From Aliirhizobium wenxiniae (GTDB lineage Bacteria > Pseudomonadota > Alphaproteobacteria > Rhizobiales > Rhizobiaceae): a stretch of DNA of 64,000 nucleotides. The position numbers and the translations under genes are program-made. The notes below the pieces were generated by a model that was not told the origin of the DNA, did no database searches, and was given only the letters and a program-made list of their open reading frames with translations. Location: the NCBI RefSeq assembly GCF_014201355.1, contig NZ_JACHEG010000002.1, positions 434,001-498,000 of the forward strand, given 5' to 3'. This document shows positions 12,389 through 31,413 of this stretch, piece after piece; positions within the stretch are counted from its first letter, which is position 1; every line of letters begins with the position of its first letter.

Positions 12389-12619
12389 TCAGGATGGCCT
12401 GGAGGGGGCTTTTCCACCGATTGAGCCGGTTGCCACAAGGCGTCCGTAAAGCGCCAGAAGGCCACCCGCCGCCCCCGTAAGCGTCACTGCGATATCGGCC
12501 AGTTCCGCCTGATCCGCAGCCCCGATCTCAAGGCCAGCAAGCTGTAGCGCGGAGGCTGCAACAGCAATCAGGGCACCCCAGATCGTCTTCGACTGATACC
12601 AGTTCTTCATCAAATCCAT
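12389..12619 (-). CDS. Holin-like small membrane protein downstream of GTA gp15
   Basis: A 76-residue protein with two hydrophobic segments (TIWGALIAVAASALQLAGL and TGAAGGLLALYGRLVA) joined by an acidic stretch (GAADQAELADIA). This layout, with the MKNWYQSKT start, resembles small holin-like proteins found in prophage lysis regions. AAGGAG lies eight bases before the ATG at 12619. It is the last gene of the GTA strand, 18 bases after the gp15 stop, so it is probably co-transcribed. A role in releasing particles is inference. Confidence 0.65.
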   Translation of the reverse strand: MDLMKNWYQSKTIWGALIAVAASALQLAGLEIGAADQAELADIAVTLTGAAGGLLALYGRLVATGSIGGKAPSRPS

Positions 12620-12637
12620 CTGTTCATCTCCTTGTTA

Positions 12638-15600
12638 TCAAAGATTGATCGAAGATCGCGCAGGAATGCCCAAAGGAACCGCGCGTCCCATCTGCCTGAC
12701 TGCGAAATCGATACTTGTTTGCCGTTCACCGAAATCGGTAAGCTCGTCTTTTGCGGCATAGGAAAAGGACGGTTCGGCCACTTCAACGCTCCTCACCACA
12801 TCGCCATATGCCATCAGATCGATGCGATATCGCTCCTGTGGTTCGTCCATCGGGATGTCCAAGGCCTCCCAGCCATCTGCGTCCACCCGGCCGCATCGCG
12901 TCCAGCCTATGACGATGTCTCCATCAGCTCTCCTGTCGGCCCAAAGATGCACAGGTGCCAACGGAGTTTCGGCGCGCTCACCACCCGTAAACACCCGAGG
13001 TCCGGCCTGACCGCCACCGCTGCCAAGGCTCTCGGCGAGCCAGTTCAGCGACCGCCCGCGTTCCTCGCTGCCAAGCCCAAGCGACACCACCGCTTCATCC
13101 AGCACGACAAACGGACTACCAGACACGGCACCGGCCACCGTCGCATCCTGCGTGCCTGCAAGCCCCCGCAGCAGACCGGACAGCCGCCAGCGTTTTGGCG
13201 CGATCTCCTGCGCCGACAGAAAACCAATGATTTCCCAGGCACCATTCTGCGCCTTCACCGCGATCCGGTTTTCGCCGGAAAGAACCGCGCCTTCATCGGC
13301 CGATGCCAGCCCGCCAAAATGAAGATCCAGCTCCAGTACATTCGCATGATCGAACCGGCCAGAGACGCCGGGCCGCAGCGGCGAATACAGCGACCCGAGC
13401 CGTGCAGGGCGATCAATCGTCACCCGTGTGCGATATGCCTCGCTGGTTGCCGAGGAGGAGACCACCATGCGCCGCCACGGCCGGCAGTAACCGGCAACGC
13501 AGGCGAAACTTTCTGATGCGGCATCGGTCAGGCGCGGAAGGTCCATGAAGTGCAGGAGGGGCTGAAAGGCATCGGAAACGCCTCCGCCGCTTGTGTGGCC
13601 CCGGCTGATCGCCACATGCGAACCGGAAGGCGGCACCGCCACATGATGGCTCGCCTCGATCCGGCGGATCGCGCCGTCTTCGATACGCTCAACCACGAAT
13701 ATCCCATCAGGCCCATCAACGAGCCGGATCGCGTCACCCGTCCCGATTGCCTGGTCGGCCGGTGAAATCGCAAAATTCACGGTCCGCCTGGCAATACGGT
13801 TTGCCCGCAGGGCAGCTTCAACCGCAGCAAGCGCCGTCTCCTCAAAAAGCGTCGCCGGCAGATCGTAGCCCAGCACCCGCTTGCCTGCGGCCACAACCGG
13901 GCGCGAGCGCACGCTTGCCTGCTCGTAGTCCAGCACCGGATTGAAGAAACCCAATGCCGTCTCTGCAGGGAAATCGCTGTCGTGCCCCCGGTTTTCCGTC
14001 CATAGCGGTTCATCCTCGATATCAGCCAGAACATTGATTTCATGCGGTTCAAGGCTCGAGGCTAATCGCGAGCGAAACCGTATCCGTCCGCCGTCCTCGA
14101 CCGCATCGATCTGAAAGGCCTCCATCAGCGGCTCGATCAAGGCCCGCGCCGAAGTGAGGTCCGCCTGCACGAAACCGGTCAGGTCACCGCTGACTGCGGA
14201 AACATCGAAATCCTCGATGCCATGGTCAACAAGGATCGCGGCAATCGCATCGGCAAGCGTGGTGCCGCCAATACGCCCGTTAAGCCAGTGCCCGGTCCGC
14301 CAGTTGCTGCCGTCGCTCCAGAACGACAGATCATCCGGAAAGGCCGGCTGCGGGCGCGCGTCCCATGTCCAGACAAAAACATGGTCCGGATCGACCATGC
14401 CCTGCGGCGCTGTATTGCCTTGCCAATGATCGTGGTGCGCCTGAAGAAAACGCCGCTGCTGGCTGTCAGATCTTCCACCCGAAGAGAAGTACGGCAGATT
14501 GCTTTCTGCCGATTTCGGATCGACGAAGACATTCGGTTGATTGGCGCCCTTGTCGACCGCGGGACACCCCAGTTCGGTAAACCACACGCGCTTCATTCCC
14601 GGCATCCAGACCGTCGGCGTCGCCCGCTCAGCACCGTCTACACGATCGAAATGCAGGCTCGACCACCAGCTTTCGATATCCTTGTAACGAAAGACCCAGG
14701 GCTTGCCCGCCAGCCCGTCGGTTATGGGTGAACGAAGGCGATTTTGCCGGTCAGCCTCACTGGCATAATACCAGTCGTAACCTTCACCGGCAGCAATCTG
14801 CCCTTTCATGCCCGTCACGTCGTCGCGCGCAGCAAAGCCATCGGGGTTACGCTTTACGAGGTCATCGTCGCGCCAGTCGGCGAGCGGCATGTAATTGTCG
14901 ATGCCAACCGCATCGATGTCCGGAGAGGCCCAGAGCGGGTCAAGATGAAAGAAAACGTCGCCGCTATCGTCCTGCGGATGATAGCCGAAATATTCGCTCC
15001 AGTCGGCACCATAGGTTATCTTCGTCTCCGCTCCGACCCTCGCCCTGACATCCCCGGCAAGTTCGACCAGTTCATCAACAAAGGGAAACCGATCCGCCTC
15101 ATCGCGCAATTGCGTCAGCCCGCGCAGTTCAGAGCCAATGATAAAGCCGTCTACACCACCCGCATCGCCCACCATATCCGCATAATGCAGAACCATGCGG
15201 CGATAACCCTCGCTGTCTTGGCTGAAGGCCTCCACCTGGGCCCGAGCAACCGCCGTCCGGTCCACCGACCCGGCTTCTCCCGGGGCAGGATGACAGGTGA
15301 TCCTGCCCCGCCAGGGATAGGCCGCCTGTTCACTGCCGCCATAAGGATCGGGCAAACCGTTTCCCGCTGGAACATCCATCATCACGAACGGATAAAGATA
15401 GACCTTCAACCCACGCGCCTTGAGGTCCGCGATTGCCGCCCTGACGCTCCTGTCGCTTGGTGTACCACCATAGGCAGGCGCGCCGTCGCGCCGGCTGACC
15501 AGGTGGGCCTCACCGCGCCCGATGCCCGCTGCCGACCAGGTATCGCTTTCATCGCGCCGCGCCTCCACTTCGACACCCGGCCTGATCCGGCAGTGCCCTG

Positions 15601-16432
15601 CACGGAGATCCGTGCCGAACCACGAGACGACCAGCGCCACCCGCTGAAGGTTCGGGCAAAGAGCCTGCAACTCATCGAGCGAAGCCTGCCAGTCGGTCAG
15701 CGCCGTCGTCGTATGCCGGTTGATGATGCGGCCGCTGCCTTCACCGGTGCTCTCCGTTACCTGAACGGTCTGATATCCATGCTCCGTTGCTCCCGGAATG
15801 AGCGTTACCGCCCGGATCTGCGCCTCCAGCCTGCCAACCGGTCTCAGCACCTCGAATTGCAGGAGCGGAATACGATTGCCGAACGCATCGAGCGGCAGCC
15901 TTTCGAAGACGACATAGGCCAGCCCACGATAAGCCGGCGCCAATCCTTCTCCCTGTTTCGCCTCGATCAGCGGATCGGGCAGCTGCTCCTCGTCGCCGCG
16001 ATAGACGCGCATTTCGATCGCAGTCAGGTCGATTTCTCGGCCATCGGCCCAGACACGCCTCACCGAAGCGATCGGCCCCTCGCACAACCCGATGGCGAAA
16101 TTGGCAAAGTAGCGAAACGTCTCGACGCGCGGCCCCGTCACCTTGCCGCCAGTGCGTTCACGCGTCACCTCCTCCTCGAAACGCGTCGCCCATATCAGCG
16201 TACCGCCGATCCGCGCCGTCCCGTAAAGCCGGTTGATGGCAGCGCCTTCGTCTGCCCCCGGAATACGGGCCGTACCCAGCCTCGCGCCCGAAATCGTGCG
16301 ATTTCCGTTGATCAAGGCCCGATCGACGACACTGCCGGCGAGAGCACCCGCAGCCCGTCCGACAATCGCGGCGATCGGACCGAACACGCCGCCTAGGGCC
16401 GCACCGGCTGCCTGGAAAAGAAGAGTAGCCAT
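12638..16432 (-). CDS. GTA gp15, host-specificity/tail tip protein (TIM-barrel)
   Basis: A 1264-residue protein, close to the length of Rhodobacter GTA gp15. The N-terminus is a glycine/alanine-rich hydrophobic stretch (AAGAALGGVFGPIAAIVGRA). The middle (about 380-760) contains the glycoside-hydrolase-like TIM-barrel region typical of GTA gp15 (KITYGADWSEYFGY, FHLDPLWASPDIDAVGIDNY, PWVFRYKDIESWW). The last third resembles phage tail-tip J proteins. It should form the baseplate hub that contacts the recipient cell. GAGGAG precedes the ATG at 16432. Confidence 0.95.
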   Translation of the reverse strand: MATLLFQAAGAALGGVFGPIAAIVGRAAGALAGSVVDRALINGNRTISGARLGTARIPGADEGAAINRLYGTARIGGTLIWATRFEEEVTRERTGGKVTGPRVETFRYFANFAIGLCEGPIASVRRVWADGREIDLTAIEMRVYRGDEEQLPDPLIEAKQGEGLAPAYRGLAYVVFERLPLDAFGNRIPLLQFEVLRPVGRLEAQIRAVTLIPGATEHGYQTVQVTESTGEGSGRIINRHTTTALTDWQASLDELQALCPNLQRVALVVSWFGTDLRAGHCRIRPGVEVEARRDESDTWSAAGIGRGEAHLVSRRDGAPAYGGTPSDRSVRAAIADLKARGLKVYLYPFVMMDVPAGNGLPDPYGGSEQAAYPWRGRITCHPAPGEAGSVDRTAVARAQVEAFSQDSEGYRRMVLHYADMVGDAGGVDGFIIGSELRGLTQLRDEADRFPFVDELVELAGDVRARVGAETKITYGADWSEYFGYHPQDDSGDVFFHLDPLWASPDIDAVGIDNYMPLADWRDDDLVKRNPDGFAARDDVTGMKGQIAAGEGYDWYYASEADRQNRLRSPITDGLAGKPWVFRYKDIESWWSSLHFDRVDGAERATPTVWMPGMKRVWFTELGCPAVDKGANQPNVFVDPKSAESNLPYFSSGGRSDSQQRRFLQAHHDHWQGNTAPQGMVDPDHVFVWTWDARPQPAFPDDLSFWSDGSNWRTGHWLNGRIGGTTLADAIAAILVDHGIEDFDVSAVSGDLTGFVQADLTSARALIEPLMEAFQIDAVEDGGRIRFRSRLASSLEPHEINVLADIEDEPLWTENRGHDSDFPAETALGFFNPVLDYEQASVRSRPVVAAGKRVLGYDLPATLFEETALAAVEAALRANRIARRTVNFAISPADQAIGTGDAIRLVDGPDGIFVVERIEDGAIRRIEASHHVAVPPSGSHVAISRGHTSGGGVSDAFQPLLHFMDLPRLTDAASESFACVAGYCRPWRRMVVSSSATSEAYRTRVTIDRPARLGSLYSPLRPGVSGRFDHANVLELDLHFGGLASADEGAVLSGENRIAVKAQNGAWEIIGFLSAQEIAPKRWRLSGLLRGLAGTQDATVAGAVSGSPFVVLDEAVVSLGLGSEERGRSLNWLAESLGSGGGQAGPRVFTGGERAETPLAPVHLWADRRADGDIVIGWTRCGRVDADGWEALDIPMDEPQERYRIDLMAYGDVVRSVEVAEPSFSYAAKDELTDFGERQTSIDFAVRQMGRAVPLGIPARSSINL

Positions 16433-16601
16433 GGTCTCTCCTCACGCATCCGTCTTCACGACTGGATGCGCGCTAAAATTGCAATAACGTATCAATGTTT
16501 AGAAGCAAAAGCAGAAGTGCCGCAGCCAGCGCGGCACATCGGTCGAGACGGGCTCCACCGACTTTGGCAGAAGCCCTGCTTTCAAACCCGGAGGTGATGT
16601 T
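16433..16601. other. Structured leader between gp15 and a plus-strand micro-ORF
   Basis: The plus strand carries an AT-rich start (16470-16508) with TTGCAA and TAGAAG about 15 bases apart as a weak promoter candidate. A perfect hairpin GTGCCGC/GCGGCAC follows at 16517-16537, then a GGGCT/AGCCC pair, and finally CGGAGGTGATGTT before an ATG. On the minus strand the same hairpin lies between gp14 and gp15. Confidence 0.4.
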
Positions 16602-16691
16602 ATGAGGCTCAAGCCGATTGGCTTTACGCTTATCTGGAGGGTGACCCGGACGGGCTGGTCAATAGCCGTCCGGATCCACTTTACCAAGTAA
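16602..16691 (+). CDS. 29-residue cationic micro-ORF antisense to the GTA operon
   Basis: The ORF encodes a short peptide rich in arginine and hydrophobic residues (it begins MRLKPIGFTLIWRV and ends IAVRIHFTK), with a net charge of about +6. GGAGGTGA, a near-perfect match to the 16S rRNA tail, lies seven bases upstream, better than most genes here. It runs opposite to the GTA genes in the 325-bp gap between gp14 and gp15. I do not recognise the family. It could be a membrane-active peptide, a type I toxin-like peptide or a regulatory leader. Confidence 0.5.
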   Translation: MRLKPIGFTLIWRVTRTGWSIAVRIHFTK

Positions 16692-16697
16692 GTCCAC

Positions 16698-16725
16698 GGT
16701 GGCCGGGGTTGCACCCCCGCTCACC
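16698..16725. other. Hairpin after the micro-ORF
   Basis: GGTG..CGGGG and CCCCG..CACC pair with a two-base mismatch around a TTGCAC loop, seven bases after the micro-ORF stop. No U-tract follows on either strand, so it is a weak terminator at best. Confidence 0.3.
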
Positions 16726-16757
16726 ACTTCAGCAATATACGCCAGTTCATCGCCGTT

Positions 16758-17201
16758 TCAATCAATCCGGGTCCCCGGAAACCGATGCACGGCAGCGATC
16801 CGCCGCTTCCACGAGGGCACCAGCGCCGAACGCGTCACCGCCACCTGCTCATAGGCATGAATGAAATAGGTCGGCGCGACAAGAATACCGGCATGCTTGG
16901 CCGCACAATCCGGCCTCCAGCGAAATAGCAGCAGGTCTCCGGGCCTTGCTTCCGCGAACGGCAACGCCTTTCCGAACAGTCGCAGCGCTGCATCCGTCAG
17001 CCGGTCCTCGCCGCTACGTTCGGCCCAGTCCGGCGCATAGGCCGGCACCGCCTCCGGCTCATTGCCATAAAGCTCGCGCCAGATACCGCGGATCAGACCG
17101 ATACAGTCGCATCCCACATGCTTCGTCGCGCCCTGATGCCGGTAAGGCGTGCCGATCCAGCTTTCCGCCAGTACAACCATCCTGTTCGCCGCCCCGCTCA
17201 T
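16758..17201 (-). CDS. GTA gp14, NlpC/P60 cell-wall peptidase
   Basis: A 147-residue peptidase with the catalytic cysteine in VGCDCIGLIRG and the histidine in AAKHAGILV. It fits the phage cell-wall peptidase group of the NlpC/P60 superfamily. In the GTA particle it is thought to open recipient peptidoglycan during DNA entry. Its ATG overlaps the gp13 stop (ATGA). The tail ends in the basic segment SWKRRIAAVHRFPG. Confidence 0.93.
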   Translation of the reverse strand: MSGAANRMVVLAESWIGTPYRHQGATKHVGCDCIGLIRGIWRELYGNEPEAVPAYAPDWAERSGEDRLTDAALRLFGKALPFAEARPGDLLLFRWRPDCAAKHAGILVAPTYFIHAYEQVAVTRSALVPSWKRRIAAVHRFPGTRID

Positions 17202-18073
17202 TCGAAGATCGGTCCACCGTCATGGATCCGCTCGCCGTCCACATAGGAATAGGCAAAGTCAGAACCCGGCACATGCGGGAAACCGCGGAAATTCAGCTGG
17301 TTGGCAAAACGCTCCCGACACGTCGAGATGGTCTTGTCGCAGCCGGCCGTCACCACGAATGCCCGTCCGGGCTCGACATCCTCCTCAAGCGGCAGCCAGA
17401 GTGAGAATACCACGCTGCCGTCGTTGCGCCTGCCATGCGCGTCCACCTCGGCGAACAGACCGTCCGAAAAGACGATCCTGCCCTGGCGGAAGAAACCATC
17501 GGCGAAATGCGCCAGCCCCGAAACGAGCAACCGGCTCCGGTCCACCATCTCGACGACCGATCCTTCGCCGCGCCAGGCGGCAAGATCCATTCTGCACCTG
17601 CCATCTCCAAGGCTCGCGTCGCAACGGCGATTGTAAAGCCTGCCCTGCGGCTGGTTCAGCCTGTGTGCCAGGCTGCGCAATTCCGCCCGAAACTGGCCAC
17701 CGGCGCGCACCACTTCGCCGATCTCGCGCACATTCAGCAACATATGCTCATCCGGCGCTGCCCAGTTGACGAAAAACAGCTCGACCCGGGCGCCATCGTA
17801 ACGCCCGGCCGCCAGATCGCCCTCGTCGATCGCCGCATTCGAAAATCCGCCGGCAACCTCGTCGGCCTCCGCGCCGAGCCCGGACGCCTGCTCGCTTTCG
17901 CTTGCCGCAAAGCCGCTCGCCGCCAGAAAATTCGTGCCGTCGAAGCCAAGATCCCGGTCATGATCGGTAAAACCGATCACCACGCCATCGCGCCGCGTCA
18001 CCCGCCAGCAATGGCAGGTCGTCGTCGCCTGCCCGTCGAGATGCGTCTTCAGCGCGGGAGGGATCGTCCTCAT
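17198..18073 (-). CDS. GTA gp13, DUF2163 tail/baseplate protein
   Basis: A 291-residue protein beginning MRTIPPALKTHLDG. It carries the DUF2163 region (TCHCWRVTRRDGVVIGFTDH, FFVNWAAPDEHMLLNVREIG) and a cysteine-bearing C-terminal part (LYNRRCDASLGDGRCRMDL; CDKTISTCRERFANQLNFRG) like phage BR0599-type proteins. The Rhodobacter homologue is a baseplate component. The start at 18073 overlaps the gp12 stop as ATGA; longer upstream frames run through gp12 and are not real. Confidence 0.93.
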   Translation of the reverse strand: MRTIPPALKTHLDGQATTTCHCWRVTRRDGVVIGFTDHDRDLGFDGTNFLAASGFAASESEQASGLGAEADEVAGGFSNAAIDEGDLAAGRYDGARVELFFVNWAAPDEHMLLNVREIGEVVRAGGQFRAELRSLAHRLNQPQGRLYNRRCDASLGDGRCRMDLAAWRGEGSVVEMVDRSRLLVSGLAHFADGFFRQGRIVFSDGLFAEVDAHGRRNDGSVVFSLWLPLEEDVEPGRAFVVTAGCDKTISTCRERFANQLNFRGFPHVPGSDFAYSYVDGERIHDGGPIFE

Positions 18074-18708
18074 GCCAATATCTCCGTCAGGGGAATGGTC
18101 GGAATACGCCCGGCATCGAAATGCGCGAGATTGACATCGATACGATCGATATCGAAGCGCACCGGCACATCGAATTCGAAGCCCGCCCCGACCAGAGCGC
18201 CTGCCGCCGGCACATGGCCGGCAAGAAAGGTGAGCACCCCGGTCGTTGCATCGACCGACCAGGCGGTGCCTGCCGCTTCCACGCCATCCACGGAGACCCG
18301 CACCGTTGCCAAAACCGGTTTCACGATCCGCCGCGTCCAGCCACCGCCGGCGTCCTGATAGGCCTTCACCAGCTGGAAAGCCGCCGTCATGCCGTCGCCG
18401 GTGCCGATGATCTGGTCGGTCGCGGCAACCGTTCCGCCCGGCGGGCACGAGGCCCAGTCGACCGGATCGCGAAAACGAAAACCATAAAGCTGCCCGCGGC
18501 GGGCCTCGAAGAACTCCAGGACCGCATAGAGATCGGCAAGTGACCGGATGCCCGATCCGGCATCGTAACTGCGCCGGCTGTCGCGCCAGCGCTGATTGCG
18601 CTGTTCCCGCCCGTTCGAAAGATTGACGATATCCGTGCGCCGCACAGGCCCACCGCTCGCCCCGAGCGCCACCCGCAGCGGAAAGCGCACGTCATGAAAT
18701 CCGCTCAT
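18070..18708 (-). CDS. GTA gp12, DUF2460 distal tail protein
   Basis: A 212-residue protein of the TIGR02217/DUF2460 family. The start region (FHDVRFPLRVALGASGGP) and the central stretch EFFEARRGQLYGFRFRDPVDW are characteristic. In GTA particles it forms the distal tail ring joining tube and baseplate. It starts 12 bases after the tape-measure gene and overlaps gp13, within the tail operon. Confidence 0.94.
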   Translation of the reverse strand: MSGFHDVRFPLRVALGASGGPVRRTDIVNLSNGREQRNQRWRDSRRSYDAGSGIRSLADLYAVLEFFEARRGQLYGFRFRDPVDWASCPPGGTVAATDQIIGTGDGMTAAFQLVKAYQDAGGGWTRRIVKPVLATVRVSVDGVEAAGTAWSVDATTGVLTFLAGHVPAAGALVGAGFEFDVPVRFDIDRIDVNLAHFDAGRIPTIPLTEILA

Positions 18709-18720
18709 CGCATTCTCCCG

Positions 18721-19257
18721 TCAAAGCCCTCTGCGGCCACGCATGACACTGCGCGCCAGCATGGCCGAAACCTGCGCCTCGCTCTTGCGAAAGCTTGCCG
18801 CATCGGTCGCCGTCACGTTGAAGACCACCTGCGGCACAGCCCCGCCGCCGGCCGATGCCACGCCAAGCGAGCCGTCCGCGCCGCGTTTCAGCGGCAGGAT
18901 CGCTTCCGGTCCAGCCTCGCCCATCAGGCCAGTGCCGCCATTCATCGGGAAATAACTCGGCGCCCGAACGACCCCGCCATCGGCAAACGGTGTCACCGAC
19001 CCGATCAGCGATCCCACGGCATTGCCGAGCAATCCTTCCAGCGGCTTCAGGCCGGCCGAGAGCGCAATATCCGTCAACCGGTTGCCAAGCCCCCGCAAGA
19101 CATCCTCGAGGCCCTTGCCGCCCGTCGTTGCCGATCTGAGCGCTCCGGTCAGCGCGGCCCCAAAACGCTGCGACCGCGCCTCCAGATCAGCCATCACATC
19201 GGACAGTGCCTCCGCGCCGGCGAACGTTGCAGACAGATTGGTATCGTCGTTTTCCAT
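18721..19257 (-). CDS. GTA gp11, short tail tape measure protein
   Basis: A 178-residue protein with an alpha-helical N-terminal half and the conserved C-terminal stretches VTPFADGGVV and GEAGPEAILPLKRG, typical of tape measure C-termini. Its small size matches the short GTA tail. It follows the tail chaperone pair and precedes gp12. Confidence 0.93.
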   Translation of the reverse strand: MENDDTNLSATFAGAEALSDVMADLEARSQRFGAALTGALRSATTGGKGLEDVLRGLGNRLTDIALSAGLKPLEGLLGNAVGSLIGSVTPFADGGVVRAPSYFPMNGGTGLMGEAGPEAILPLKRGADGSLGVASAGGGAVPQVVFNVTATDAASFRKSEAQVSAMLARSVMRGRRGL

Positions 19258-19298: not shown

Positions 19299-19529
19299 TC
19301 AATCCGGAAACACCCGCATCAACGCATCCAGCTCCGCCCTGCCGACCGCCATCGTGCGAGGCCGTGCACCACCAGCCATGAGAAAGAATTCGACCGGCGT
19401 CAGTGCCCAGAAATCCCGTGAGGAAAGCCGCAGCAGGCAGAAGCCGACATGCATGACGACATCCCAGGGAAATGGCGCCGATGCGCCTGCCCTGTCGTCA
19501 CTTGCGCCCTCTCCCGCTGCGGCATTCAA
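19299..19529 (-). CDS. GTA tail assembly chaperone gp10.1 (rcc01693 family)
   Basis: A 76-residue protein with the core PWDVVMHVGFCLLRLSSRDF and EFFLMAGG, matching the short phage tail assembly chaperone family seen in GTA clusters. It overlaps gp10 by ATGA and precedes the tape measure gene, the usual place of a chaperone that coats it. The first 15 residues are alanine/glycine-rich and may be unstructured. Confidence 0.88.
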   Translation of the reverse strand: MNAAAGEGASDDRAGASAPFPWDVVMHVGFCLLRLSSRDFWALTPVEFFLMAGGARPRTMAVGRAELDALMRVFPD

Positions 19530-25008: not shown

Positions 25009-25215
25009 ATGCAGATGCTCTTTTTGATCGCACTCGGCATCGTATCCGGCACCGCCCTGATCGCAGGCGCGATCCGGCTGGCCCTTTATCCGCCCGGCAT
25101 TTTCAAAAAGGCCATCATGGCTGAACCGCTCGACAGGCCGGACCACGCGCTGGGAGACGCCGCCATGTATGCCGGCAGCGAAGGAAGCCACGGCAGCGGC
25201 GAGAGCCACGGCTGA
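25009..25215 (+). CDS. Small membrane protein, plus strand inside GTA cluster
   Basis: A 68-residue protein with one N-terminal hydrophobic segment (LFLIALGIVSGTALIAGAI), a short proline-bearing loop and a histidine/glycine/serine-rich tail (GSEGSHGSGESHG). I prefer the ATG at 25009 because GGAGG lies five bases upstream. It is opposite to the GTA genes and ends four bases from the gp3.5 stop. I do not recognise it. Confidence 0.6.
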   Translation: MQMLFLIALGIVSGTALIAGAIRLALYPPGIFKKAIMAEPLDRPDHALGDAAMYAGSEGSHGSGESHG

Positions 25216-25219
25216 CAGC

Positions 25220-25546
25220 CTAACGCCGCCCGCCATATCTTTCCGCCACGCGAGACAAAGCCCCCAGTACCCACCAGGCACAAAGGCTCGCCGCCGCCGA
25301 GCCTGCCAGCATCGTCTCCGCCCCCGACAACATGCCGGAAAGGCCGAGCCGTTCGGCCAGCCACAATCCCGTCGGCCCACCGAAGATCAGCCCGCAGGTC
25401 ATGCCCGTCGCAAAACGGCTTGCCGCCTCACGCCGGCTCTTCGGCAGAAGATAGATCAGCGACACGCCGGCCCCGGCAAAAGCCCCAGCCGTCTTCGCCG
25501 CCAAGACGCCAAACATCGCGCCCGGATCATGTCCAAGGTCAGCCAT
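25220..25546 (-). CDS. GTA gp3.5-position membrane protein (DUF6107-like)
   Basis: A 108-residue protein with three hydrophobic segments (MFGVLAAKTAGAFAGAGVSL, ATGMTCGLIFGGPTGLWLA and AGSAAASLCAWWVLGAL). It stands between portal and protease, where Rhodobacter GTA has gp3.5. I chose the ATG at 25546 because AAGGA lies seven bases upstream. I recall rhizobial proteins of this type as DUF6107, but this was not verified. Confidence 0.75.
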   Translation of the reverse strand: MADLGHDPGAMFGVLAAKTAGAFAGAGVSLIYLLPKSRREAASRFATGMTCGLIFGGPTGLWLAERLGLSGMLSGAETMLAGSAAASLCAWWVLGALSRVAERYGGRR

Positions 25547-25792
25547 TGTTAATTCCTTGTCCGTTAGAGGGGACGGCGCTCGGCGCTGCAATGATCGAAC
25601 GCCACTCCGTTCGGGCGAACGCTCAAGGCGTGCAGAACCACATGCGGCATTCTGTTACCGCCAAAGTCGTCGAGACTTTCACCAATATTCAGAATCGCTT
25701 GGGCGATAAATTTGAAAGGTTGAGTCCGGCACTTCACGGGTTGAGTGAAGGCGCTCATTCCACAGCCTCTTCACCCAAAGATACAAAGCGCA

Positions 25793-26097
25793 TTATTCGA
25801 ATGCGTCGTCGTCATCCTTATCAAGATCAGCTGGTCCCTGCCTGCCATGCAGGACCGAGACGATCGTGATGCGATCAAGCTGAATTACGTAATCCAGATT
25901 ATAGGGTGCCGATACGAACCGGCGAACGTCATCTGCAGGTGCGACGACGACACCGACATGGGGATGATCGCCAATCAGGCGAGCAGCCTTCTTTATCTGA
26001 TCCGAAAAGGCCACGGCAGAACGCCTGCCAAACTGGGCCAGATAGTGCCGTTACCTCTCGACATAGCGATCGCTTCCTGAGAGAAGCGCACTTGCAT
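25793..26097 (-). pseudogene. Broken ParE/RelE-type toxin gene
   Basis: The main frame gives a RelE/ParE-like C-terminal body (AFSDQIKKAARLIGDHPHVG, then FVSAPYNLDYVIQLD and ITIVSVLHGRQG). The expected N-terminus (MQVRFSQEA) starts at an ATG at 26097 that overlaps the antitoxin stop, but in another frame. In the body frame an in-frame TAA lies at 26053-26051 (after YVER, before RHYLAQFGRR), with no usable start codon upstream of GTG at 26014. So the toxin has at least one frameshift and a premature stop and is probably inactive. Confidence 0.72.
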
Positions 26098-26386
26098 CAG
26101 GCGGCATCCTCGCGGTTGAGGCAATCAAGTTCCGCGAAGAACTCTTCCGCGTCTACCGTTCGTCCGGCCTCCACGTCCTCAAGCCCCCGGCGGATACTGA
26201 GCATTTCCGCCCCCTCCGCCATGAGGTAATATTTCAGCGCCCGAACAATCACCCAGCTGCGGCTGCGATCGGCCGTTTCGGCGATCTTCTCGATATCGTC
26301 CAGATGTCCTGCGGCACGCGCAGGGTGATCGGATCGGATAGAACCGGCTTTTCTGCCGATTTGTCTGACTTTGCCTTTTCAGCCAT
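26097..26386 (-). pseudogene. Broken ParD/RHH-type antitoxin gene
   Basis: From the ATG at 26386 (GGAGG upstream) the frame reads MAEKAKSDKSAEKPVL, then DPITLRVPQDI, the start of a ribbon-helix-helix domain. It then shifts near 26307. The continuation in the next frame is clear (LDDIEKIAETADRSRSWVIV, then RALKYYL) and ends at a TGA overlapping the toxin ATG. One missing base explains the break. Together with the toxin this is a decayed type II module lodged between the portal and gp3.5 genes. Confidence 0.75.
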
Positions 26387-26399
26387 CGTATCCTCCGAG

Positions 26400-26422
26400 T
26401 TTGTAATACGGCGTATTACAAA
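26400..26422. promoter_or_regulatory. Perfect palindromic operator of the parDE remnant
   Basis: TTTGTAATACG and CGTATTACAAA form a perfect 11-bp inverted repeat around a single G, ending 13 bases before the antitoxin ATG. RHH antitoxins bind such palindromes to repress their own operon. It remains intact although both genes are broken, which suggests the damage is recent. Confidence 0.75.
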
Positions 26423-26444
26423 TCACACCCGCGGCGGTTTTCCA

Positions 26445-27650
26445 TCAATAACCCACCGCCTCGCGCTTCTCCTCGTCCGAGAGGAAATCCGCCGCTCCTA
26501 CCCGCGCCCACAAGGCTTCCCGTTCCGCACCCAGCCCGGCGATCCGGTCGAGATCCGGCTCCAGCCGCAATTCCCCGAAGATCTCGGAAAGCCAGGCGGA
26601 GAAGCTCGCGGCAGTCCGCGCAATCAGCGGCAGCACGGTCAGCCTGTAGAAGGCGCGGTTCGCCTCCTGGTAATTGGCATAGGTATTGTCGCCGGGAATG
26701 CCGATCAGCATCGGCGGTACACCCAGGGCAAGAGCGATATCGCGCGCGGCACCGTTTCTCGCCTCGATGAAATCCATGTCCTTCGGCGAAAGCCCCATCG
26801 CCTTCCAGTCCAGGCCGCCTTCAAGCAGCAGGGGCCGACCGGCATTGACGGCGCCGGAATACCCCGCCTCCAGCTCGTCCTTCAGCCGCTGATACTGGTC
26901 GGCCGAAAGATTGCCGCCATCCTTCGGCTGATAGACGAGTGCGCCGGAAGGCCGCGCGGAATTGTCGAGCAGAGCCTTGTTACAGCCCGCCGCCGCATTG
27001 GAAAGATCGAGTGCTGCCCCCGCCGCGACAAGCGGCGAAAAGCCGGAATGGTCATCGAGCGGGTGAAACAGTTTCAAGTGCAGCAGCGAAAGCCGCCCAT
27101 CCTCGGCTTCAGCCGCTAGCCTGCGCGTTCCTCCGCCTGCGCGATAATCATACCCCGTCACCCAGCCATCACGCCCCTCGACGACGCTCACCCGATCGGG
27201 CCGCAACAGGTGCAGTTCGCGCAAACTGCCGCCGATCGCCAACGGTTCGACATAGGCATTGCCGGAGAGGAGCAGATGCCCGTAGAGCGCCTCGAAAAAA
27301 TCCGGTCCGCCCTGCCGTCCGTTCGGGCGCAGAAGCAGTGAGAGCGCCGGATGATCCGCAACTTCCGCAGCGCCCTCGTAAGCCAGCCACGGTACAGCGG
27401 CCGCCGCCTCCGCAATCATCCGCACCGCCCGATATGCCACCGGATTGCGCATGAACCCTGTCCGCGCCAACGCCGCATAGGACCTGCCGGACCAATGCGG
27501 CGTTCCTTCGCTCGCAAGCACCGCAAAAGCGGACGCGACGCCCCCCGCCATCTTCACCTCGGCCACGGGCTCGCCGCCCGTCCCCTGATCTGCAGACACG
27601 GCTTTGCGTTCCCCCGTGGAAAGCCACGGCAGGCGAAAAGGAGATTTCAT
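26445..27650 (-). CDS. GTA gp3, HK97-family portal protein
   Basis: A 401-residue portal subunit. The N-terminus is basic, then RNPVAYRAVRMIAEAAAAVPW and LLRPNGRQGGPDFFEALYGH, and GNAYVEPL mark the portal fold. The C-terminus contains ALGVPPMLIGIPGDNTYANY, a strong family signature. AAGGA lies eight bases before the ATG. It forms the DNA entry vertex. Confidence 0.96.
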   Translation of the reverse strand: MKSPFRLPWLSTGERKAVSADQGTGGEPVAEVKMAGGVASAFAVLASEGTPHWSGRSYAALARTGFMRNPVAYRAVRMIAEAAAAVPWLAYEGAAEVADHPALSLLLRPNGRQGGPDFFEALYGHLLLSGNAYVEPLAIGGSLRELHLLRPDRVSVVEGRDGWVTGYDYRAGGGTRRLAAEAEDGRLSLLHLKLFHPLDDHSGFSPLVAAGAALDLSNAAAGCNKALLDNSARPSGALVYQPKDGGNLSADQYQRLKDELEAGYSGAVNAGRPLLLEGGLDWKAMGLSPKDMDFIEARNGAARDIALALGVPPMLIGIPGDNTYANYQEANRAFYRLTVLPLIARTAASFSAWLSEIFGELRLEPDLDRIAGLGAEREALWARVGAADFLSDEEKREAVGY

Positions 27651-27681: not shown

Positions 27682-27990
27682 CTACCTGAGCGGCGTCTTT
27701 ACCGCCTTGTCGCTGTCATAGTCTGCGGCAATGCGCATCTCGCGAAGCGGCCGCACGGTTTCAGTCGATTTATGATAGATCGGATGCGCCTTGTAGGCTG
27801 CCAGCGCCGCCTCGTCCTCGAACTCGCCGTAGACGATGAAATCGACTTCCCGGTCCCACTGGTCGGTCTTCACGTTCGTGCCGATTTCCAGAAGCGACGC
27901 ATGCGGATTTGCGGTCAGCATCGAAAGCCCTGCCCGGACATCCTCGAGATTTTCGGACGTGGCCGTGAAAAACACGATATGGCGTATCAT
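27682..27990 (-). CDS. Dabb-domain protein (stress-responsive A/B barrel)
   Basis: A 102-residue protein beginning MIRHIVFFTATSENLEDV. It has the ferredoxin-like pattern of the Dabb family (VDFIVYGEFEDEAALAAY, HPIYHKSTETVRPL). I chose the ATG at 27990, preceded by GGAG at five bases. It shares the GTA strand and lies 31 bases before the portal gene but is not a known GTA component. Its role is unknown. Confidence 0.85.
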   Translation of the reverse strand: MIRHIVFFTATSENLEDVRAGLSMLTANPHASLLEIGTNVKTDQWDREVDFIVYGEFEDEAALAAYKAHPIYHKSTETVRPLREMRIAADYDSDKAVKTPLR

Positions 27991-28027: not shown

Positions 28028-28696
28028 CTAACACGCGTCCCCGCCCGCATCAATGCGCCTCGGCAAAGCCAGCCGAAATGCCTTGGCGTATCCCGCCACA
28101 AGTTCCGCCCGATCCGTCCCGTTGACGATCTTTCGCGCACCGGTCCAGTCTCTCCTGCCGTCAGCGAAATAATCGCCGAGCCTGCGGCCGGTAAACGAAC
28201 CCTTGAGCATGCCACTGACAAGGATCGCGACTGCAACGCCCATTTCCATCGCACGCCCCGGCTCGGAGACGAGATCGATCCCGGTCAGTGCCGACATCGC
28301 CTCGTAATTTCTCCGATGCGTCAGTTGCACGAAGCCGCGGCCAAGCCAGGTCCTGCCTTCGGCATCCGGGCGCCAATAGGGGATCTTCACCGCGGGAATC
28401 CGACCTGCCTTGAAGGCTTTTTCCAGCCGGGCAATCGCTTCCTCATCATCGAGCGCCAGCGTCTCACGCACCGGCTGCATCGTCGCTGCTGTCTCATGGA
28501 AAGCTGTCGCCAGCACATAGGCCAGCGCATCGTCGCCACCCGCAGACTTTCGAGCGGCCACGCTCAGTTTCGTCCATCCGTCGAGAATCTTATTGAGCCC
28601 GTTAACCTCGCGCCATTTCAAACGCCCTGAAAACAGGCTCTTACGCACCTCGTCGAAGAAAATGCGACGTTCCGCCGCATTGTTAAGCTTACCCAT
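28028..28696 (-). CDS. GH19/chitinase-like endolysin
   Basis: A 222-residue protein of the lysozyme-like glycoside hydrolase 19 group. The likely catalytic glutamate is in YVLATAFHETAATMQPV. The substrate-cleft motif GRGFVQLTHRRNYEAM is typical of phage endolysins that cut peptidoglycan. It has no signal peptide, so release would need a holin. It lies between the terminase and portal genes on the GTA strand. A holin-like gene lies at the other end of the cluster. Confidence 0.85.
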   Translation of the reverse strand: MGKLNNAAERRIFFDEVRKSLFSGRLKWREVNGLNKILDGWTKLSVAARKSAGGDDALAYVLATAFHETAATMQPVRETLALDDEEAIARLEKAFKAGRIPAVKIPYWRPDAEGRTWLGRGFVQLTHRRNYEAMSALTGIDLVSEPGRAMEMGVAVAILVSGMLKGSFTGRRLGDYFADGRRDWTGARKIVNGTDRAELVAGYAKAFRLALPRRIDAGGDAC

Positions 28697-29019: not shown

Positions 29020-29355
29020 ATGTCCGGATGGCGTAACTACGTGGCACCGGTCCTTATGGGAACGGTGCTTTTGTTTGGTGCAAGCATGCTGGTCAGGGTG
29101 GCCATGGATCCATCCTGCGCCCCGCGACAAGCCGAGCATTCACGCCGAATGCAACAATCCGAACAAGCTCTCTTGCGGCTGTCGTCACTGCCGCGAAAAC
29201 AACAATGCCTGTTCTATCGCGAGCGCGCCGCACTCCTCGCCGAACAGATAAGACCAGGCGATCGGTGTTTCGGGCCGGGCCGCAACGGTGAAGCGCTGAG
29301 AAGGCAGACAGAGGCTCGACTTTACAAGGACCTTGCCGAAAGCTGTACGCTCTAA
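29020..29355 (+). CDS. Hypothetical protein with N-terminal membrane anchor
   Basis: A 111-residue protein with an N-terminal hydrophobic segment (VAPVLMGTVLLFGASMLV) and a basic, helical, cysteine-bearing remainder (MDPSCAPRQAEH, KQQCLFYRERAALLAEQ). It is convergent with the large terminase gene, 11 bases away. The ribosome site is poor. It may form an operon with the 40-residue gene just upstream. Confidence 0.5.
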   Translation: MSGWRNYVAPVLMGTVLLFGASMLVRVAMDPSCAPRQAEHSRRMQQSEQALLRLSSLPRKQQCLFYRERAALLAEQIRPGDRCFGPGRNGEALRRQTEARLYKDLAESCTL

Positions 29356-29366: not shown

Positions 29367-30947
29367 TCATATCCCCCGCACCCGCGGTTCGCCCTGCCCT
29401 TCCAGCACCAGCGCTGTCAGCGCCCAGACCAGCGCATCCAGCCTGTCAGGTGAACGCCCCGATGACAGCCCATCGGGACCAAAATCGCACATCTGGTCCT
29501 CCAGTTCGATAAACCGCCCTGCATGCGCCACCCTTCCCTGTTCATAGAGCGCCGCCACCGGCTCGGCACGCAGAAACTTTCCGCGTGTTGCGCGCACCAT
29601 GGTGATCGGCAGTGCGACGTCGACGCTTCGAAGCATCGCCGTCACCATCTCGCCGCCCTGGTTGACCTCGGCGACGATCCTGTCGGCAGCAAACCGCCGA
29701 TAGGCCTTCACGACAGACTGCGCCCACTGGGCGGGCGTTGCGCCCTCAATGGAACAATCCGCCAGCACCACGGCACGCCCCTCCGGTTCCAGCCCGGCCA
29801 CGACGATGCCGCAACAGGAATTCTGTCCTATGCCTGCGGGCGGATCGACCGCAACGACGATCCGCCTTAATGCCGGTACGACCCGGATCACACAGGCCTC
29901 GATCTCTAAGCGGCGCCACAGCGCGTCCTCGCGGTCCTCGATCAGTTCGCCCGCCAGTTCCTGCCGGCCCAGCCTCGTGCCGCCATACCGGCGTTCCAGT
30001 GCCTCGATGAAACCAGGCGCCAGGTTTTTCCGGTTGTCGCCGGTCGCGATCCTGACCAACCGGGTGGAAGGATCGGCGATCAGCCGTTTCAATACCGGCA
30101 CCGGTCGCGGCGTCGTCGTCACCAGTTGGCGCGGATCGGTCCCTAACCGCAGGCCGAATTGCAGCATGTCGAAAGTCTCTTCCGCATGTTTCCATTTTCC
30201 AAGCTCGTCGCACCAGGCATAATGAAACTGCGGCCCGCGCAGCGCCTCGGGGTCTTCGGAGGAAAATATCTGCGCCACCGCTCCGTTCGGCCAGACAAGC
30301 CGACGCCGCGAGATTTCAAAGTCCGGAGAGTTCCCGCGCGCAATCCGGCAGATACCGGATACGCCGTCGATCATCACCTCGCGGGCGTCACCCAACGTTT
30401 CCGCCACCAGCGCAATCCTCAGATTGGACCGCTCCTCAGCAGAAGCCAGCTTATGCACCCATTCGGCCCCGGCCCGCGTCTTGCCCGATCCGCGTCCACC
30501 CATGACCAACCAGGTGCGCCAGTCACCTGCGGGCGGCCTCTGTTCCGGTCGACCGTTGACGTCCCAGTCCCGTTCATAGCGAGAGACGAACCGTGCCGGT
30601 ACGACAAGCCCTTCCACCTCGACGACCGCTGAAGGTTGCGCCGCCGCTGTCGAAGATGCTTCAGCCGTCTCTATTTCATGCGCATGGCTTGCCCCTCGCG
30701 CCAATATGTTTTCCGCGCTGGTGACCGCCATGCATTCACTCTCATGCTGCTCGTCGATACCCTGCATGCCTGCCTGATGTTGGGCAGCGATACGATTTTT
30801 CTGCTTGGCGAGACGCCTCGCGTCGGATGCCCGTGCACGACGCTCAGCCCGTGCCCGATGGCGGATCGGTGCCCGCTCGTCGAGGCTCGGCATCAGAGGC
30901 AGCACCGTTTCGGATCCATGTAGCAAGAAGACTTTTGGCCCGTTCAT
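29367..30947 (-). CDS. terL: GTA gp2, large terminase (packaging ATPase/nuclease)
   Basis: The ATPase has Walker A in VMGGRGSGKTRAGAEW, a Walker B-like acidic segment in FHYAWCDELGKW and the coupling motif LVTTTPRPVPVLKRL. The nuclease domain has VVAVDPPAGIG and RSPDRLDALVWAL. It drives headful packaging of host DNA. The 526-residue frame is about 100 residues longer at the N-terminus than the ATPase needs. The extension is charged and low in complexity and overlaps the small terminase gene by 104 bases. The true start may be internal, for example the ATG at 30731, just after that gene. Confidence 0.94.
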   Translation of the reverse strand: MNGPKVFLLHGSETVLPLMPSLDERAPIRHRARAERRARASDARRLAKQKNRIAAQHQAGMQGIDEQHESECMAVTSAENILARGASHAHEIETAEASSTAAAQPSAVVEVEGLVVPARFVSRYERDWDVNGRPEQRPPAGDWRTWLVMGGRGSGKTRAGAEWVHKLASAEERSNLRIALVAETLGDAREVMIDGVSGICRIARGNSPDFEISRRRLVWPNGAVAQIFSSEDPEALRGPQFHYAWCDELGKWKHAEETFDMLQFGLRLGTDPRQLVTTTPRPVPVLKRLIADPSTRLVRIATGDNRKNLAPGFIEALERRYGGTRLGRQELAGELIEDREDALWRRLEIEACVIRVVPALRRIVVAVDPPAGIGQNSCCGIVVAGLEPEGRAVVLADCSIEGATPAQWAQSVVKAYRRFAADRIVAEVNQGGEMVTAMLRSVDVALPITMVRATRGKFLRAEPVAALYEQGRVAHAGRFIELEDQMCDFGPDGLSSGRSPDRLDALVWALTALVLEGQGEPRVRGI

Positions 30948-31413
30948 CCGCCTTGTCCGCTATCAGCCTCTGCAGGCGGTCTTTCGCCTCTCCATAACCG
31001 CCCTCATCGGCCACGCGCTCGGCCTCGATCTCGCGATCCCGCGCCAGCTGCCTTTGAAGACTGTCGACCTTTTCGAGCGTGCGCACGATCAGGCTCATTG
31101 CGTCGGTCGCCGCCTTCACGTCGGCGCGCGCCAGCTTTTGCGCCGCGTCGTCGCCATCCGTCAGCGCCCCGGCCGCGCTCTCGCGCATCTTTCTGAAGGT
31201 GGAAAACTGTTCGCGCATCTCCACCGTCATGTCGTTTAATAGCTTGCGCAATTCGTCGCTCGCAGAAACGCCGCCATCCGCCGACTTGATCTCCAGCGCA
31301 ATCCGCACTTCATCCGCCAGCGCGACATCCTCCGTCGGCATCTCGTCGCCATAGGCCGCGCGATCCCGCCAGATGCCGAACAGGCCCGGATCGAAACTGT
31401 CGAACTCATCCAT
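30844..31413 (-). CDS. GTA gp1, small terminase-like DNA-packaging protein
   Basis: A 189-residue acidic protein with a long helical, coiled-coil-like middle (ADEVRIALEIKSADGG, MREQFSTFRKMRESAAGAL, VRTLEKVDSLQRQLARD). It is the first gene of the GTA strand, immediately before the large terminase, the position of Rhodobacter GTA gp1, which is the small terminase. I chose the ATG at 31413 because GGAG lies six bases upstream; in-frame ATGs at 31425 and 31440 are alternatives. Confidence 0.75.
   Translation of the reverse strand: MDEFDSFDPGLFGIWRDRAAYGDEMPTEDVALADEVRIALEIKSADGGVSASDELRKLLNDMTVEMREQFSTFRKMRESAAGALTDGDDAAQKLARADVKAATDAMSLIVRTLEKVDSLQRQLARDREIEAERVADEGGYGEAKDRLQRLIADKADERAKSLLATWIRNGAASDAEPRRAGTDPPSGTG

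What the first reader, a model, noticed from the sequence alone, without database searches (positions are those of the whole stretch)
12389..31413. Complete GTA structural cluster with multiple insertions
All genes of the Rhodobacter-type GTA structural set (gp1 to gp15, with gp3.5 and gp10.1) appear intact and in order on one strand, most joined by ATGA overlaps. Established knowledge: such clusters package host DNA in Rhodobacter, Bartonella and Caulobacter. Unusual here: six or more extra elements interrupt the cluster, some on the opposite strand, while every structural frame stays open. This suggests selection to keep the particle despite the split transcript.
Basis: partly seen in the sequence, partly recalled or inferred. 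Interest (0 to 1): 0.75.

Follow-up and report, generated by a model that had tools for sequence, protein, structure and literature searches.

The report
GTA cluster hiding a peptide gene
A soil bacterium related to Rhizobium carries an intact, selection-maintained set of genes for a virus-like particle of the kind that carries its host's own DNA between cells, with likely cell-bursting genes and one likely switch; inside the set, on the opposite strand, lies a gene for a 29-residue peptide from a family for which I found no description.

Summary
The cluster is real: gp1-gp15 are open, in order, on the minus strand. It is an RcGTA-type cluster, a known kind, in a Rhizobium/Neorhizobium-clade genome. 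dN/dS is 0.04-0.37 for the gp genes. The inserts are mostly old and sit at the same module junctions in named relatives. In six relatives with collapsed clusters, MFS, Dabb and sp41 survive (16 of 18 cells), structural genes do not (1 of 96), and the lysozyme-like GH19 and holin-like sp76 mostly go too (2 of 12). I read GH19 plus sp76 as the GTA lysis pair. A 'split transcript' is not supported: a GafYZ-type pair lies about 20 kb beyond the window, and an AGGA-N6-TCCT-type box occurs exactly twice in the 6.4-Mb genome, before gp1 and before gafY. One promoter plus antitermination is likelier. The surprise is the gp14|gp15 insert: a covarying structured RNA on the opposite strand encoding a 29-aa amphipathic peptide, in 56 of 247 family genomes, often in tandem, and in Rhizobium phages, with no Pfam, NCBIfam or Rfam family above cut-off. 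Particle production is untested.

The parts
31614..31627 (-). AGGAAAATAATCCT box, candidate GafY-binding element, next to -35 TTGACG (31614-31609) and -10 TAGGGT (31591-31586)
   Evidence: exact in 59 of 69 gp1 upstreams; only two exact sites in G000, here and before gafY
30844..31413 (-). gp1
   Evidence: position; conserved synteny; dN/dS 0.17-0.25 against four relatives; no family match
29367..30947 (-). gp2 large terminase
   Evidence: Terminase_6N 1e-30, Terminase_6C 1e-23
29020..29355 (+). sp111+, ORF with one hydrophobic segment, opposite strand
   Evidence: 2 of 110 loci (30 of the 110 are short), also L143-L145 and L160
28867..28992 (+). sp41+, 41-aa ORF, opposite strand, divergent from GH19
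   Evidence: 46 of 110 loci (30 of the 110 are short); intact in 6 of 6 deeply decayed clusters
28028..28696 (-). GH19-type lysozyme-like gene, candidate GTA endolysin
   Evidence: phrog_181 endolysin 5e-28; H67, E68, E78 and G119-R-G-x-V-Q-x-T126 invariant in 75 of 75; intact in 1 of 6 collapsed clusters
27682..27990 (-). Dabb-domain gene, passenger
   Evidence: Dabb 2e-17; intact in 5 of 6 collapsed clusters
26445..27650 (-). gp3 portal
   Evidence: TIGR01537 9e-68
25790..26430 (-). broken RHH antitoxin / ParE-like toxin pair, no full open frame
   Evidence: RHH_1 fragment below cut-off and reading of the sequence; RHH ORFs in 42 and ParE-like ORFs in 31 of 80 named loci at this junction
25220..25546 (-). 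gp3.5 position, DUF6107
   Evidence: PF19602 3e-44; dN/dS 0.04-0.12
25009..25215 (+). sp68+, ORF with one hydrophobic segment, opposite strand
   Evidence: 12 of 110 loci
24291..24896 (-). gp4 prohead protease
   Evidence: TIGR01543 6e-33
23026..24294 (-). gp5 major capsid protein
   Evidence: TIGR01554 3e-121
22337..22906 (-). gp6 head-tail connector
   Evidence: TIGR02215 1e-71
22005..22340 (-). gp7 head closure
   Evidence: TIGR01563 4e-18
21610..22008 (-). gp8 tail completion
   Evidence: PF11367 2e-29
20406..21629 (+). MFS transporter, opposite strand, passenger
   Evidence: MFS_1 3e-26; ArsK-like below cut-off; intact in 5 of 6 collapsed clusters
19888..20295 (-). gp9 major tail protein
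   Evidence: TIGR02126 3e-30
19526..19891 (-). gp10
   Evidence: Phage_TAC_11 5e-29
19299..19529 (-). gp10.1 tail assembly chaperone
   Evidence: Phage_TAC_6 2e-16
18721..19257 (-). gp11 tape measure, 178 aa
   Evidence: RcGTA_tape 141 bits, cut-off 220
18070..18708 (-). gp12 distal tail
   Evidence: TIGR02217 1e-89
17198..18070 (-). gp13 baseplate hub (start codon assumed at the gp12 end)
   Evidence: TIGR02218 1e-94
16758..17201 (-). gp14 NlpC/P60 peptidase
   Evidence: TIGR02219 2e-59
16489..16736 (+). structured RNA element on the opposite strand
   Evidence: 78-pair model, 31 pairs with two-sided changes, 0 of 500 shuffles reach that number; alifold -167.4 against -64.2 sd 5.2
16602..16691 (+). 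29-aa peptide ORF with strong Shine-Dalgarno (GGAGGTGAT)
12638..16432 (-). gp15 baseplate megatron
   Evidence: NF048004 1641 bits
12389..12619 (-). sp76, candidate GTA holin
   Evidence: best PHROG has no function (phrog_29088, 4e-9), second is holin phrog_34682 3e-5; one hydrophobic segment; dN/dS 0.05-0.12; intact in 26 of 28 full-capsid genomes examined against 1 of 6 collapsed clusters; on the capsid contig, 7-16 kb away, in 29 of 31 genus genomes with full capsid gene

Best explanation
This is an RcGTA-type gene transfer agent cluster kept by purifying selection. It most likely works as follows. (1) GafY (DnaA_C-type) binds the AGGA-N6-TCCT-type box before gp1, and the one at its own promoter. 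(2) GafZ (DUF6456) loads on RNA polymerase and carries it about 19 kb through all structural genes and through the opposite-strand inserts. (3) Terminase, portal, protease and capsid build a head that packages host DNA; gp6-gp15 build connector, tail and baseplate. (4) The in-cluster GH19 lysozyme and the holin-like sp76 lyse the producer. MFS, Dabb and sp41 are passengers held at module junctions; the ParDE-like pair is broken here but has open frames in relatives. The gp14|gp15 insert is an independent small-peptide gene with a structured mRNA, read against the GTA operon. Shown by computation: gene content, selection, junction pattern, co-decay, shared box, RNA covariation. Inferred: every functional step.
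For: Family matches for the structural set. dN/dS 0.04-0.37. Synteny in named relatives. No spacer over 100 bp at gp4|5 (0 of 80), gp6|7 (0 of 74), gp9|10 (0 of 70), gp12|13 (0 of 67), while gp8|gp9 exceeds 300 bp in 51 of 72. Co-decay: passengers 16 of 18, structural 1 of 96, GH19+sp76 2 of 12 (Fisher passengers against lysis pair p 0.0001, not corrected for kinship); sp76 is intact in 26 of 28 full-capsid genomes by the same rule, GH19 in all 74 of 80 named loci where it is found. GafY-like Bac_DnaA_C 6e-13 beside GafZ-like DUF6456 5e-41; DUF6456 rings only in Caulobacter among 14 control genomes. Exact box twice in G000 where about 0.25 is expected from base composition; 63 of 63 exact sites in 80 loci lie upstream of gp1.
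Against: No particle, transcript or lysis data exist here. DUF6456 matches in all 57 genus genomes including the ten without a full capsid gene, so it is not strictly coupled to the GTA. The box pattern was derived partly from the two promoters it marks; 6 of 69 gp1 upstreams show no box within 330 bp, though three of these have one further up. GH19 is intact though divergent in one collapsed cluster (G027) and sp76 in another (G069). The holin assignment is weak (E 3e-5; the best PHROG has no function; DUF7940 E 0.044). The six collapsed clusters may share ancestry. I found no terminator to be read through: 11 terminator-like sites against 17.7 expected. That DUF6456 is the GafZ domain is my recall, supported only by the Caulobacter control and the neighbouring DnaA_C gene.
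Confidence: 0.72

Rival explanations
1. The cluster is a relic on its way out: frames are open only because decay is recent, and no particle is made.
For: 10 of 57 genus genomes lack a full capsid gene and six clusters are collapsed; the TA pair inside this cluster is already broken.
Against: dN/dS 0.04-0.37 against five relatives with dS up to about 1.15; every structural frame open.
Confidence: 0.15
2. The inserts split the cluster into separately transcribed units: several plus-strand inserts start just upstream of a GTA gene (sp41|GH19, sp68|gp4, MFS|gp9), giving divergent promoters.
For: Geometry; sp41 and MFS recur at these junctions.
Against: The gp1 box is absent from all internal junctions in 80 loci, although promoters without that box are not excluded; promoter-like sites are near chance, 6 against 3.9; many relatives lack sp68 or MFS.
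Confidence: 0.2
3. The gp14|gp15 element is a non-coding intergenic palindromic repeat (REP type), and the ORF follows from the hairpin.
For: Multicopy and tandem; strong palindromes; pN/pS only 0.73 within the GTA copies, against 0.75 and 1.24 in the other two frames of that strand.
Against: GGAGG invariant and ATG invariant but for one sequence; ORF in 47 of 51 copies read, 31 exactly 29 aa; in 31 copies pN/pS 0.60 in frame against 0.89 and 1.47 in shifted frames, third position most diverse; strict hydrophobic alternation on both sides of the turn.
Confidence: 0.12

Closest known systems
RcGTA of Rhodobacter capsulatus and other RcGTA-like clusters
   Same: Same gene set and order gp1-gp15, one strand, HK97-type head and siphovirus-like tail
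   Different: Here a lysozyme-like gene lies inside the cluster and a holin-like gene directly after gp15. R. capsulatus uses a holin-endolysin mechanism (PMC13236601, passages); that its genes lie outside the main cluster is recalled
RcGTA-like clusters of Agrobacterium and Rhizobium sp. IRBG74
   Same: A lysozyme gene between large terminase and portal was reported there, homologous to ORF29 of Rhizobium phage 16-3 (PMC11409702 section 10)
   Different: The words holin and endolysin do not occur in that paper's main text; co-decay, box, junction map and peptide gene were not in the passages and the section I saw
CcGTA of Caulobacter crescentus
   Same: GafY- and GafZ-like genes as a split pair; a shared element at GTA and gafYZ promoters; antitermination plausible (PMC11150451, passages)
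   Different: CcGTA lyses by LypABC and no holin-endolysin was found there (PMC13236601, passages); the Caulobacter paper found a GafY motif difficult to predict by MEME
Type I toxin-antitoxin mRNAs such as hok
   Same: Short cationic peptide, highly structured mRNA with SD paired to the 3' end, tandem copies, presence on phages and plasmids
   Different: Predicted amphipathic beta-hairpin without a hydrophobic helix, whereas membrane type I toxins are described as alpha-helical (PMC8309996, passages); no toxicity or antisense RNA shown. The 3'-end pairing of such mRNAs is partly recalled

Membership tests
RcGTA-like gene transfer agent | RcGTA structural set in order on one strand | tested here: met
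   gp11 below cut-off, gp1 and gp3.5 by position
RcGTA-like gene transfer agent | Fixed chromosomal place, vertical inheritance | tested here: met
   In 10 of 10 capsid-less genus genomes the flanking RR ortholog lies beside cluster remnants; no tree was built
RcGTA-like gene transfer agent | Purifying selection on particle genes | tested here: met
   dN/dS 0.04-0.37
RcGTA-like gene transfer agent | Packages random host DNA into particles | not testable with these tools
   needs culture
GafYZ/GafA-controlled GTA | GafY (DnaA_C) and GafZ (DUF6456) homologs | tested here: met
   the domain names for GafY and GafZ are recalled
GafYZ/GafA-controlled GTA | Shared regulatory element at GTA and gafYZ promoters | tested here: met
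   box in 16 of 20 gafY stretches by a relaxed pattern; binding not tested
GafYZ/GafA-controlled GTA | Antitermination over the cluster | not testable with these tools
   needs RNA-seq or reporters
Holin-endolysin lysis | Endolysin with conserved catalytic-type residues | tested here: met
   the GH19 Pfam match itself is below cut-off, 19.7 of 25.5 bits; activity untested
Holin-endolysin lysis | Holin | tested here: inconclusive
   phrog_34682 E 3e-5 behind a PHROG of unknown function, one hydrophobic segment
Type I toxin-antitoxin | Small peptide under 60 aa with structured, SD-sequestered mRNA | tested here: met
   (SD helix 5 paired in 95.1% of cells)
Type I toxin-antitoxin | Alpha-helical transmembrane segment | tested here: not met
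   highest 19-residue hydropathy 0.85 over 31 peptides
Type I toxin-antitoxin | Antisense antitoxin RNA and toxicity | not testable with these tools
   needs expression tests; not filed as a type I TA

The most novel reading that the evidence does not exclude
The gp14|gp15 insert belongs to an undescribed gene family of the Rhizobiaceae (GTDB sense) and their phages: a structured mRNA that hides its ribosome site by pairing with its own 3' end and encodes a ~29-residue cationic, strictly alternating beta-hairpin peptide that acts on membranes as a regulated toxin, a beta-hairpin kind unlike the alpha-helical ones described. At this locus the GTA transcript is its antisense RNA, so starting GTA production silences the peptide, and losing the GTA locus or its transcript would release it. 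All three in-cluster placements found (gp14|gp15; gp2|GH19 in G017; gp2|gp3 in G227) lie antisense to the GTA genes. That it is a real translated family with a structured mRNA I hold at about 0.85; the toxin and GTA-antisense reading is the probability given here.
Probability: 0.25. Interest if true: 0.8.

Novelty: new variant of a known kind. Interest (0 to 1): 0.6.

Why it matters
In the papers I saw, GTA lysis and its switch are worked out in Rhodobacter and Caulobacter, which differ from each other. The Rhizobiaceae clusters offer a third arrangement, with a testable promoter element found exactly at two places in the genome and a candidate lysis pair in the cluster. Naturally collapsed clusters separate particle genes from passengers without any experiment. 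The peptide family, multicopy in some genomes, present in Rhizobium phages and mostly unannotated there, would give rhizobial genetics a new class of small gene to test.

Tried and rejected
Internal divergent promoters as the cause of insert tolerance: looked for the gp1 box at the junctions of 80 loci, none found. Promoter and terminator scans: near or below chance. Direct repeats like the 150-bp terGTA repeats of Caulobacter: none of that size in the cluster, longest 43 nt at 72%. Genome-wide regulon from the box with one mismatch: 18 further sites against 8 for the reversed control; in the ten I inspected no GTA-like gene stood out downstream, by eye and without a family search. GafZ as a GTA-coupled marker: rejected, matched in 57 of 57. 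The minus-strand reading of the gp14|gp15 insert (x71 frame): rejected, the longest open stretch differs from locus to locus. Enrichment of the peptide family in GTA clusters: three placements against 0.2 to 0.6 expected, too few to claim. TA modules as guardians of the cluster: ParDE-, HicAB- and TacAT-like and a weak Phd-like match at three junctions, but no genome-wide background computed, so not claimed. The whole 250-nt element was not made into a covariance model because of its length; a 148-column core was used. Not done: structure prediction, a tree of losses, searches for head-spike or tail-fibre genes elsewhere in the genome.
Full report
What is there. The window is G000:C2:434001-498000 of a 6.43-Mb genome whose nearest named capsid relatives are 'Rhizobiales bacterium' AFS isolates and Rhizobium wenxiniae HU50. 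From 31413 down to 12389 on the minus strand lies a complete RcGTA-type cluster. Family matches name gp2-gp10.1 and gp12-gp15 except gp3.5. gp11 reaches only 141 of the 220 bits its RcGTA model asks for; gp1 and gp3.5 (DUF6107) are assigned by position.

Selection. Against five relatives, dN/dS is 0.04-0.12 for the capsid, 0.05-0.09 for the portal, 0.07-0.23 for the terminase and at most 0.37 for any gp gene (gp10.1); gp1 could be compared with four. Of 57 genomes of the genus, 47 have a full orthologous capsid gene and 10 do not: the particle is kept by most, lost by some.

The inserts. The 80 named loci L031-L110 are the best 80 of 549 relatives by capsid similarity, not a random sample. In them the spacers between consecutive cluster genes were measured. 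No spacer over 100 bp occurs at gp4|gp5 (0 of 80), gp6|gp7 (0 of 74), gp9|gp10 (0 of 70) or gp12|gp13 (0 of 67); few at gp7|gp8 (3 of 74), gp13|gp14 (3 of 66), gp10|gp10.1 (2 of 70) and gp1|gp2 (4 of 69). Spacers over 300 bp are common at gp2|GH19 (45 of 72), GH19|gp3 (48 of 74), gp3|gp3.5 (57 of 78), gp8|gp9 (51 of 72) and gp14|gp15 (25 of 65). The same families recur: MFS at gp8|gp9 on the opposite strand in 43 loci, an RHH antitoxin at gp3|gp3.5 in 42 and a ParE-like partner in 31, Dabb in 39. GH19 is intact in 74 of 80 loci; of the six misses, three loci (L049, L072, L110) do not reach it and three (L039, L078, L087) show none. In the window the RHH/ParE pair is broken. Other TA kinds sit in relatives: HicB (7 loci) and HicA (3) at GH19|gp3, TacA-like (9) with a GNAT partner (10) at gp8|gp9, a Phd-like match below cut-off (2) at gp8|gp9 (one representative each searched).

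Co-decay. In the ten genomes without a full capsid gene I fetched the locus and scored each gene as intact if one ORF covers at least 85% of the window protein. Three are partial losses (G028, G073, G024), one locus is cut by a contig end (G068), six are collapsed (G027, G031, G035, G065, G069, G077); only these six are counted below. The sixteen numbered gp genes without gp3.5 are intact in 1 of 96 cells (gp8 in G031); MFS 5 of 6, Dabb 5 of 6, sp41 6 of 6, gp3.5 3 of 6, GH19 1 of 6, sp76 1 of 6. Passengers 16 of 18 against lysis candidates 2 of 12 gives Fisher p 0.0001, without correction for shared ancestry. Baselines by the same rule: in the named loci where a match is found, GH19 is intact in 74 of 74, Dabb 39 of 39, MFS 46 of 48, sp41 in only 34 of 67, so the rule is harsh on very short genes; sp76 is intact in 8 of 15 named loci, most of which end near it, and in 26 of 28 full-capsid genomes with complete stretches (1 of 6 against 26 of 28, p 0.0004). 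So GH19 and sp76 behave like GTA genes; MFS, Dabb and sp41 do not; gp3.5 is in between. The two exceptions are a divergent GH19 (40% identity) in G027 and sp76 in G069.

Lysis. GH19 matches an endolysin PHROG at 5e-28; H67, E68, E78 and the G-R-G-x-V-Q-x-T motif are invariant in 75 of 75 sequences. Pfam's GH19 model is matched only below its cut-off. sp76's best PHROG has no known function (4e-9), the next is a holin (3e-5); it has one hydrophobic segment by a simple scan. Of the 31 genus genomes with a full capsid gene, 29 carry sp76 on the same contig, 7-16 kb away, and two on another contig. A lysozyme at this place was already reported in Agrobacterium and Rhizobium sp. IRBG74 clusters (PMC11409702, section 10).

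Switch. A GafY-like ORF (Bac_DnaA_C 6e-13) and a GafZ-like ORF (DUF6456 5e-41) overlap about 20 kb beyond the window end. Aligned gp1 upstreams share a block reading, in the window, ATAGGAAAATAATCCTTGACGGCGTGACGGT, then a -10. Upstreams of gafY share AGGAAA followed by an A/T-rich stretch and TCC (19 of 20 stretches aligned, L177 gave no match; a relaxed pattern hits 16 of 20). The exact pattern AGGAAAWWARTCCY has two sites in the whole genome, C2:465614 before gp1 and C2:519422 before gafY, where base composition predicts 0.25. In 80 loci all 63 exact sites lie upstream of gp1: 59 within 450 bp and four further upstream. No copy lies at an internal junction. In Caulobacter GafZ is an antiterminator that reads through a terminator in the cluster, and GafY's motif was hard to predict by MEME (PMC11150451, passages). 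I infer that the same read-through lets this cluster tolerate opposite-strand genes. Against strict coupling, DUF6456 matches in 57 of 57 genus genomes, including the ten without a full capsid gene; in G031 and G072 only fragments match.

The peptide gene. The 325-bp gp14|gp15 insert is single-copy in the genome by DNA search and has no DNA match in the plasmid or phage collections. Aligned over 25 loci and folded on the plus strand it reaches -167.4 kcal/mol (-141.3 on the minus strand; 60 column shuffles of the plus strand mean -64.2, sd 5.2). The 78-pair model has 93.0% paired cells and 31 pairs with changes on both sides; 0 of 500 shuffles reach the observed value in four of five measures and 2 of 500 in the fifth; slid versions pair 35-42%. 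The structure was derived from this alignment, which favours it over slid versions. G-U cells exceed A-C cells on both strands, more so on the plus strand (171:64 against 87:46). The plus strand holds an invariant GGAGG and an ATG kept in all but one sequence, followed by a short ORF; in 20 of 25 loci the peptide is exactly 29 aa. Helix 5 pairs the Shine-Dalgarno region with the 3' end (95.1% of cells). The coding signal within these 25 loci alone is weak: pN/pS 0.73 in frame, 0.75 and 1.24 in the other frames.

The family. A covariance model of a 148-column core finds the element in 56 of 247 genomes of the GTDB family, up to 12 copies each, with tandem copies 309-425 nt apart in the arrays I measured. 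I read 51 of the 58 matches in the fetched loci (six double fetches and L204, which has the same peptide as L205, were left out); these loci were the best matches and tandem arrays, not a random draw. By a motif-based reading 47 of 51 have the ORF, 31 exactly 29 aa; pN/pS is 0.60 in frame, 0.89 and 1.47 in shifted frames. Over the 31 peptides, positions 8, 10, 12, 19, 21, 23, 25 and 27 are hydrophobic in 94-100% and the positions between in 0-35%; net charge +3 to +7; no 19-residue hydrophobic segment. That is the pattern of an amphipathic beta-hairpin; no structure was predicted. Two family peptides match 11 phage records (10 Rhizobium phages of 115-122 kb and one freshwater record) and plasmid records of Sinorhizobium, Pararhizobium, Shinella, Rhizobium and Roseibium at E 1e-4 to 1e-2; no feature is annotated under the match except in the freshwater record (the plasmid gene table is incomplete). 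All six fetched stretches match the RNA model. Pfam and NCBIfam give nothing above cut-off for six peptides; Rfam nothing at gathering score in the window and only one sub-threshold match each (E 0.087; Brucella sRNA 120, E 0.15). Literature searches (peptide letters) and passages of PMC5082802, PMC10117765 and PMC8309996 did not show it; the library is partial, so absence from print is not proven.

Placement. In three lineages the element lies in a GTA cluster, each time antisense: gp14|gp15 here, gp2|GH19 in G017, gp2|gp3 in tandem in G227. The other listed copies I compared with capsid positions lie elsewhere. Expected placements are 0.2-0.6, so enrichment is only suggestive.

Verdict. The GTA cluster is a good new member of a known kind with variant features (in-cluster lysis candidates, candidate promoter box, ordered junctions). 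The unexpected item is the peptide gene family.

Noticed in passing
window 12638-22906: Against G007 (L143), dS is 0.36-0.84 for gp6-gp14 (and 0.70 for gp3.5) but 0.04-0.30 for gp2, sp41, GH19, gp5, gp15 and sp76, with MFS (0.23) low in between: the tail block looks exchanged by homologous recombination around the MFS gene.
   Followed up: partly
L060, L081, L108, L097, L153: Clusters lacking blocks of tail genes: gp9 or gp10 to gp14 with gp15 sequence kept (L060, L081, L108), gp7-gp15 (L097), or gp12-gp14 and most of gp15 (L153 = G022).
   Followed up: no
L148 and L160 (G028): A close relative lacks the capsid gene and the first half of gp6, with gp3, gp12 and gp15 broken: early GTA decay.
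   Followed up: partly
window 28867-28992: sp41+, a 41-aa opposite-strand ORF, is kept in all six collapsed clusters: a small gene of unknown function apparently independent of the GTA.
   Followed up: partly
window 25790-26430: Type II TA modules of several kinds (ParDE-, HicAB-, TacAT-like) occupy GTA junctions in relatives; the one here is broken.
   Followed up: partly
L162-L181, upstream of gafY: A conserved palindrome GAATTAATTC lies just before the gafY start in 18 of the 19 aligned upstreams, a possible operator for a RogA-like repressor.
   Followed up: no
L239 (MW462191.1 5432-10515): A freshwater contig filed as a phage but carrying metabolic genes has two tandem copies of the peptide element; one is annotated as a hypothetical protein.
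   Followed up: no
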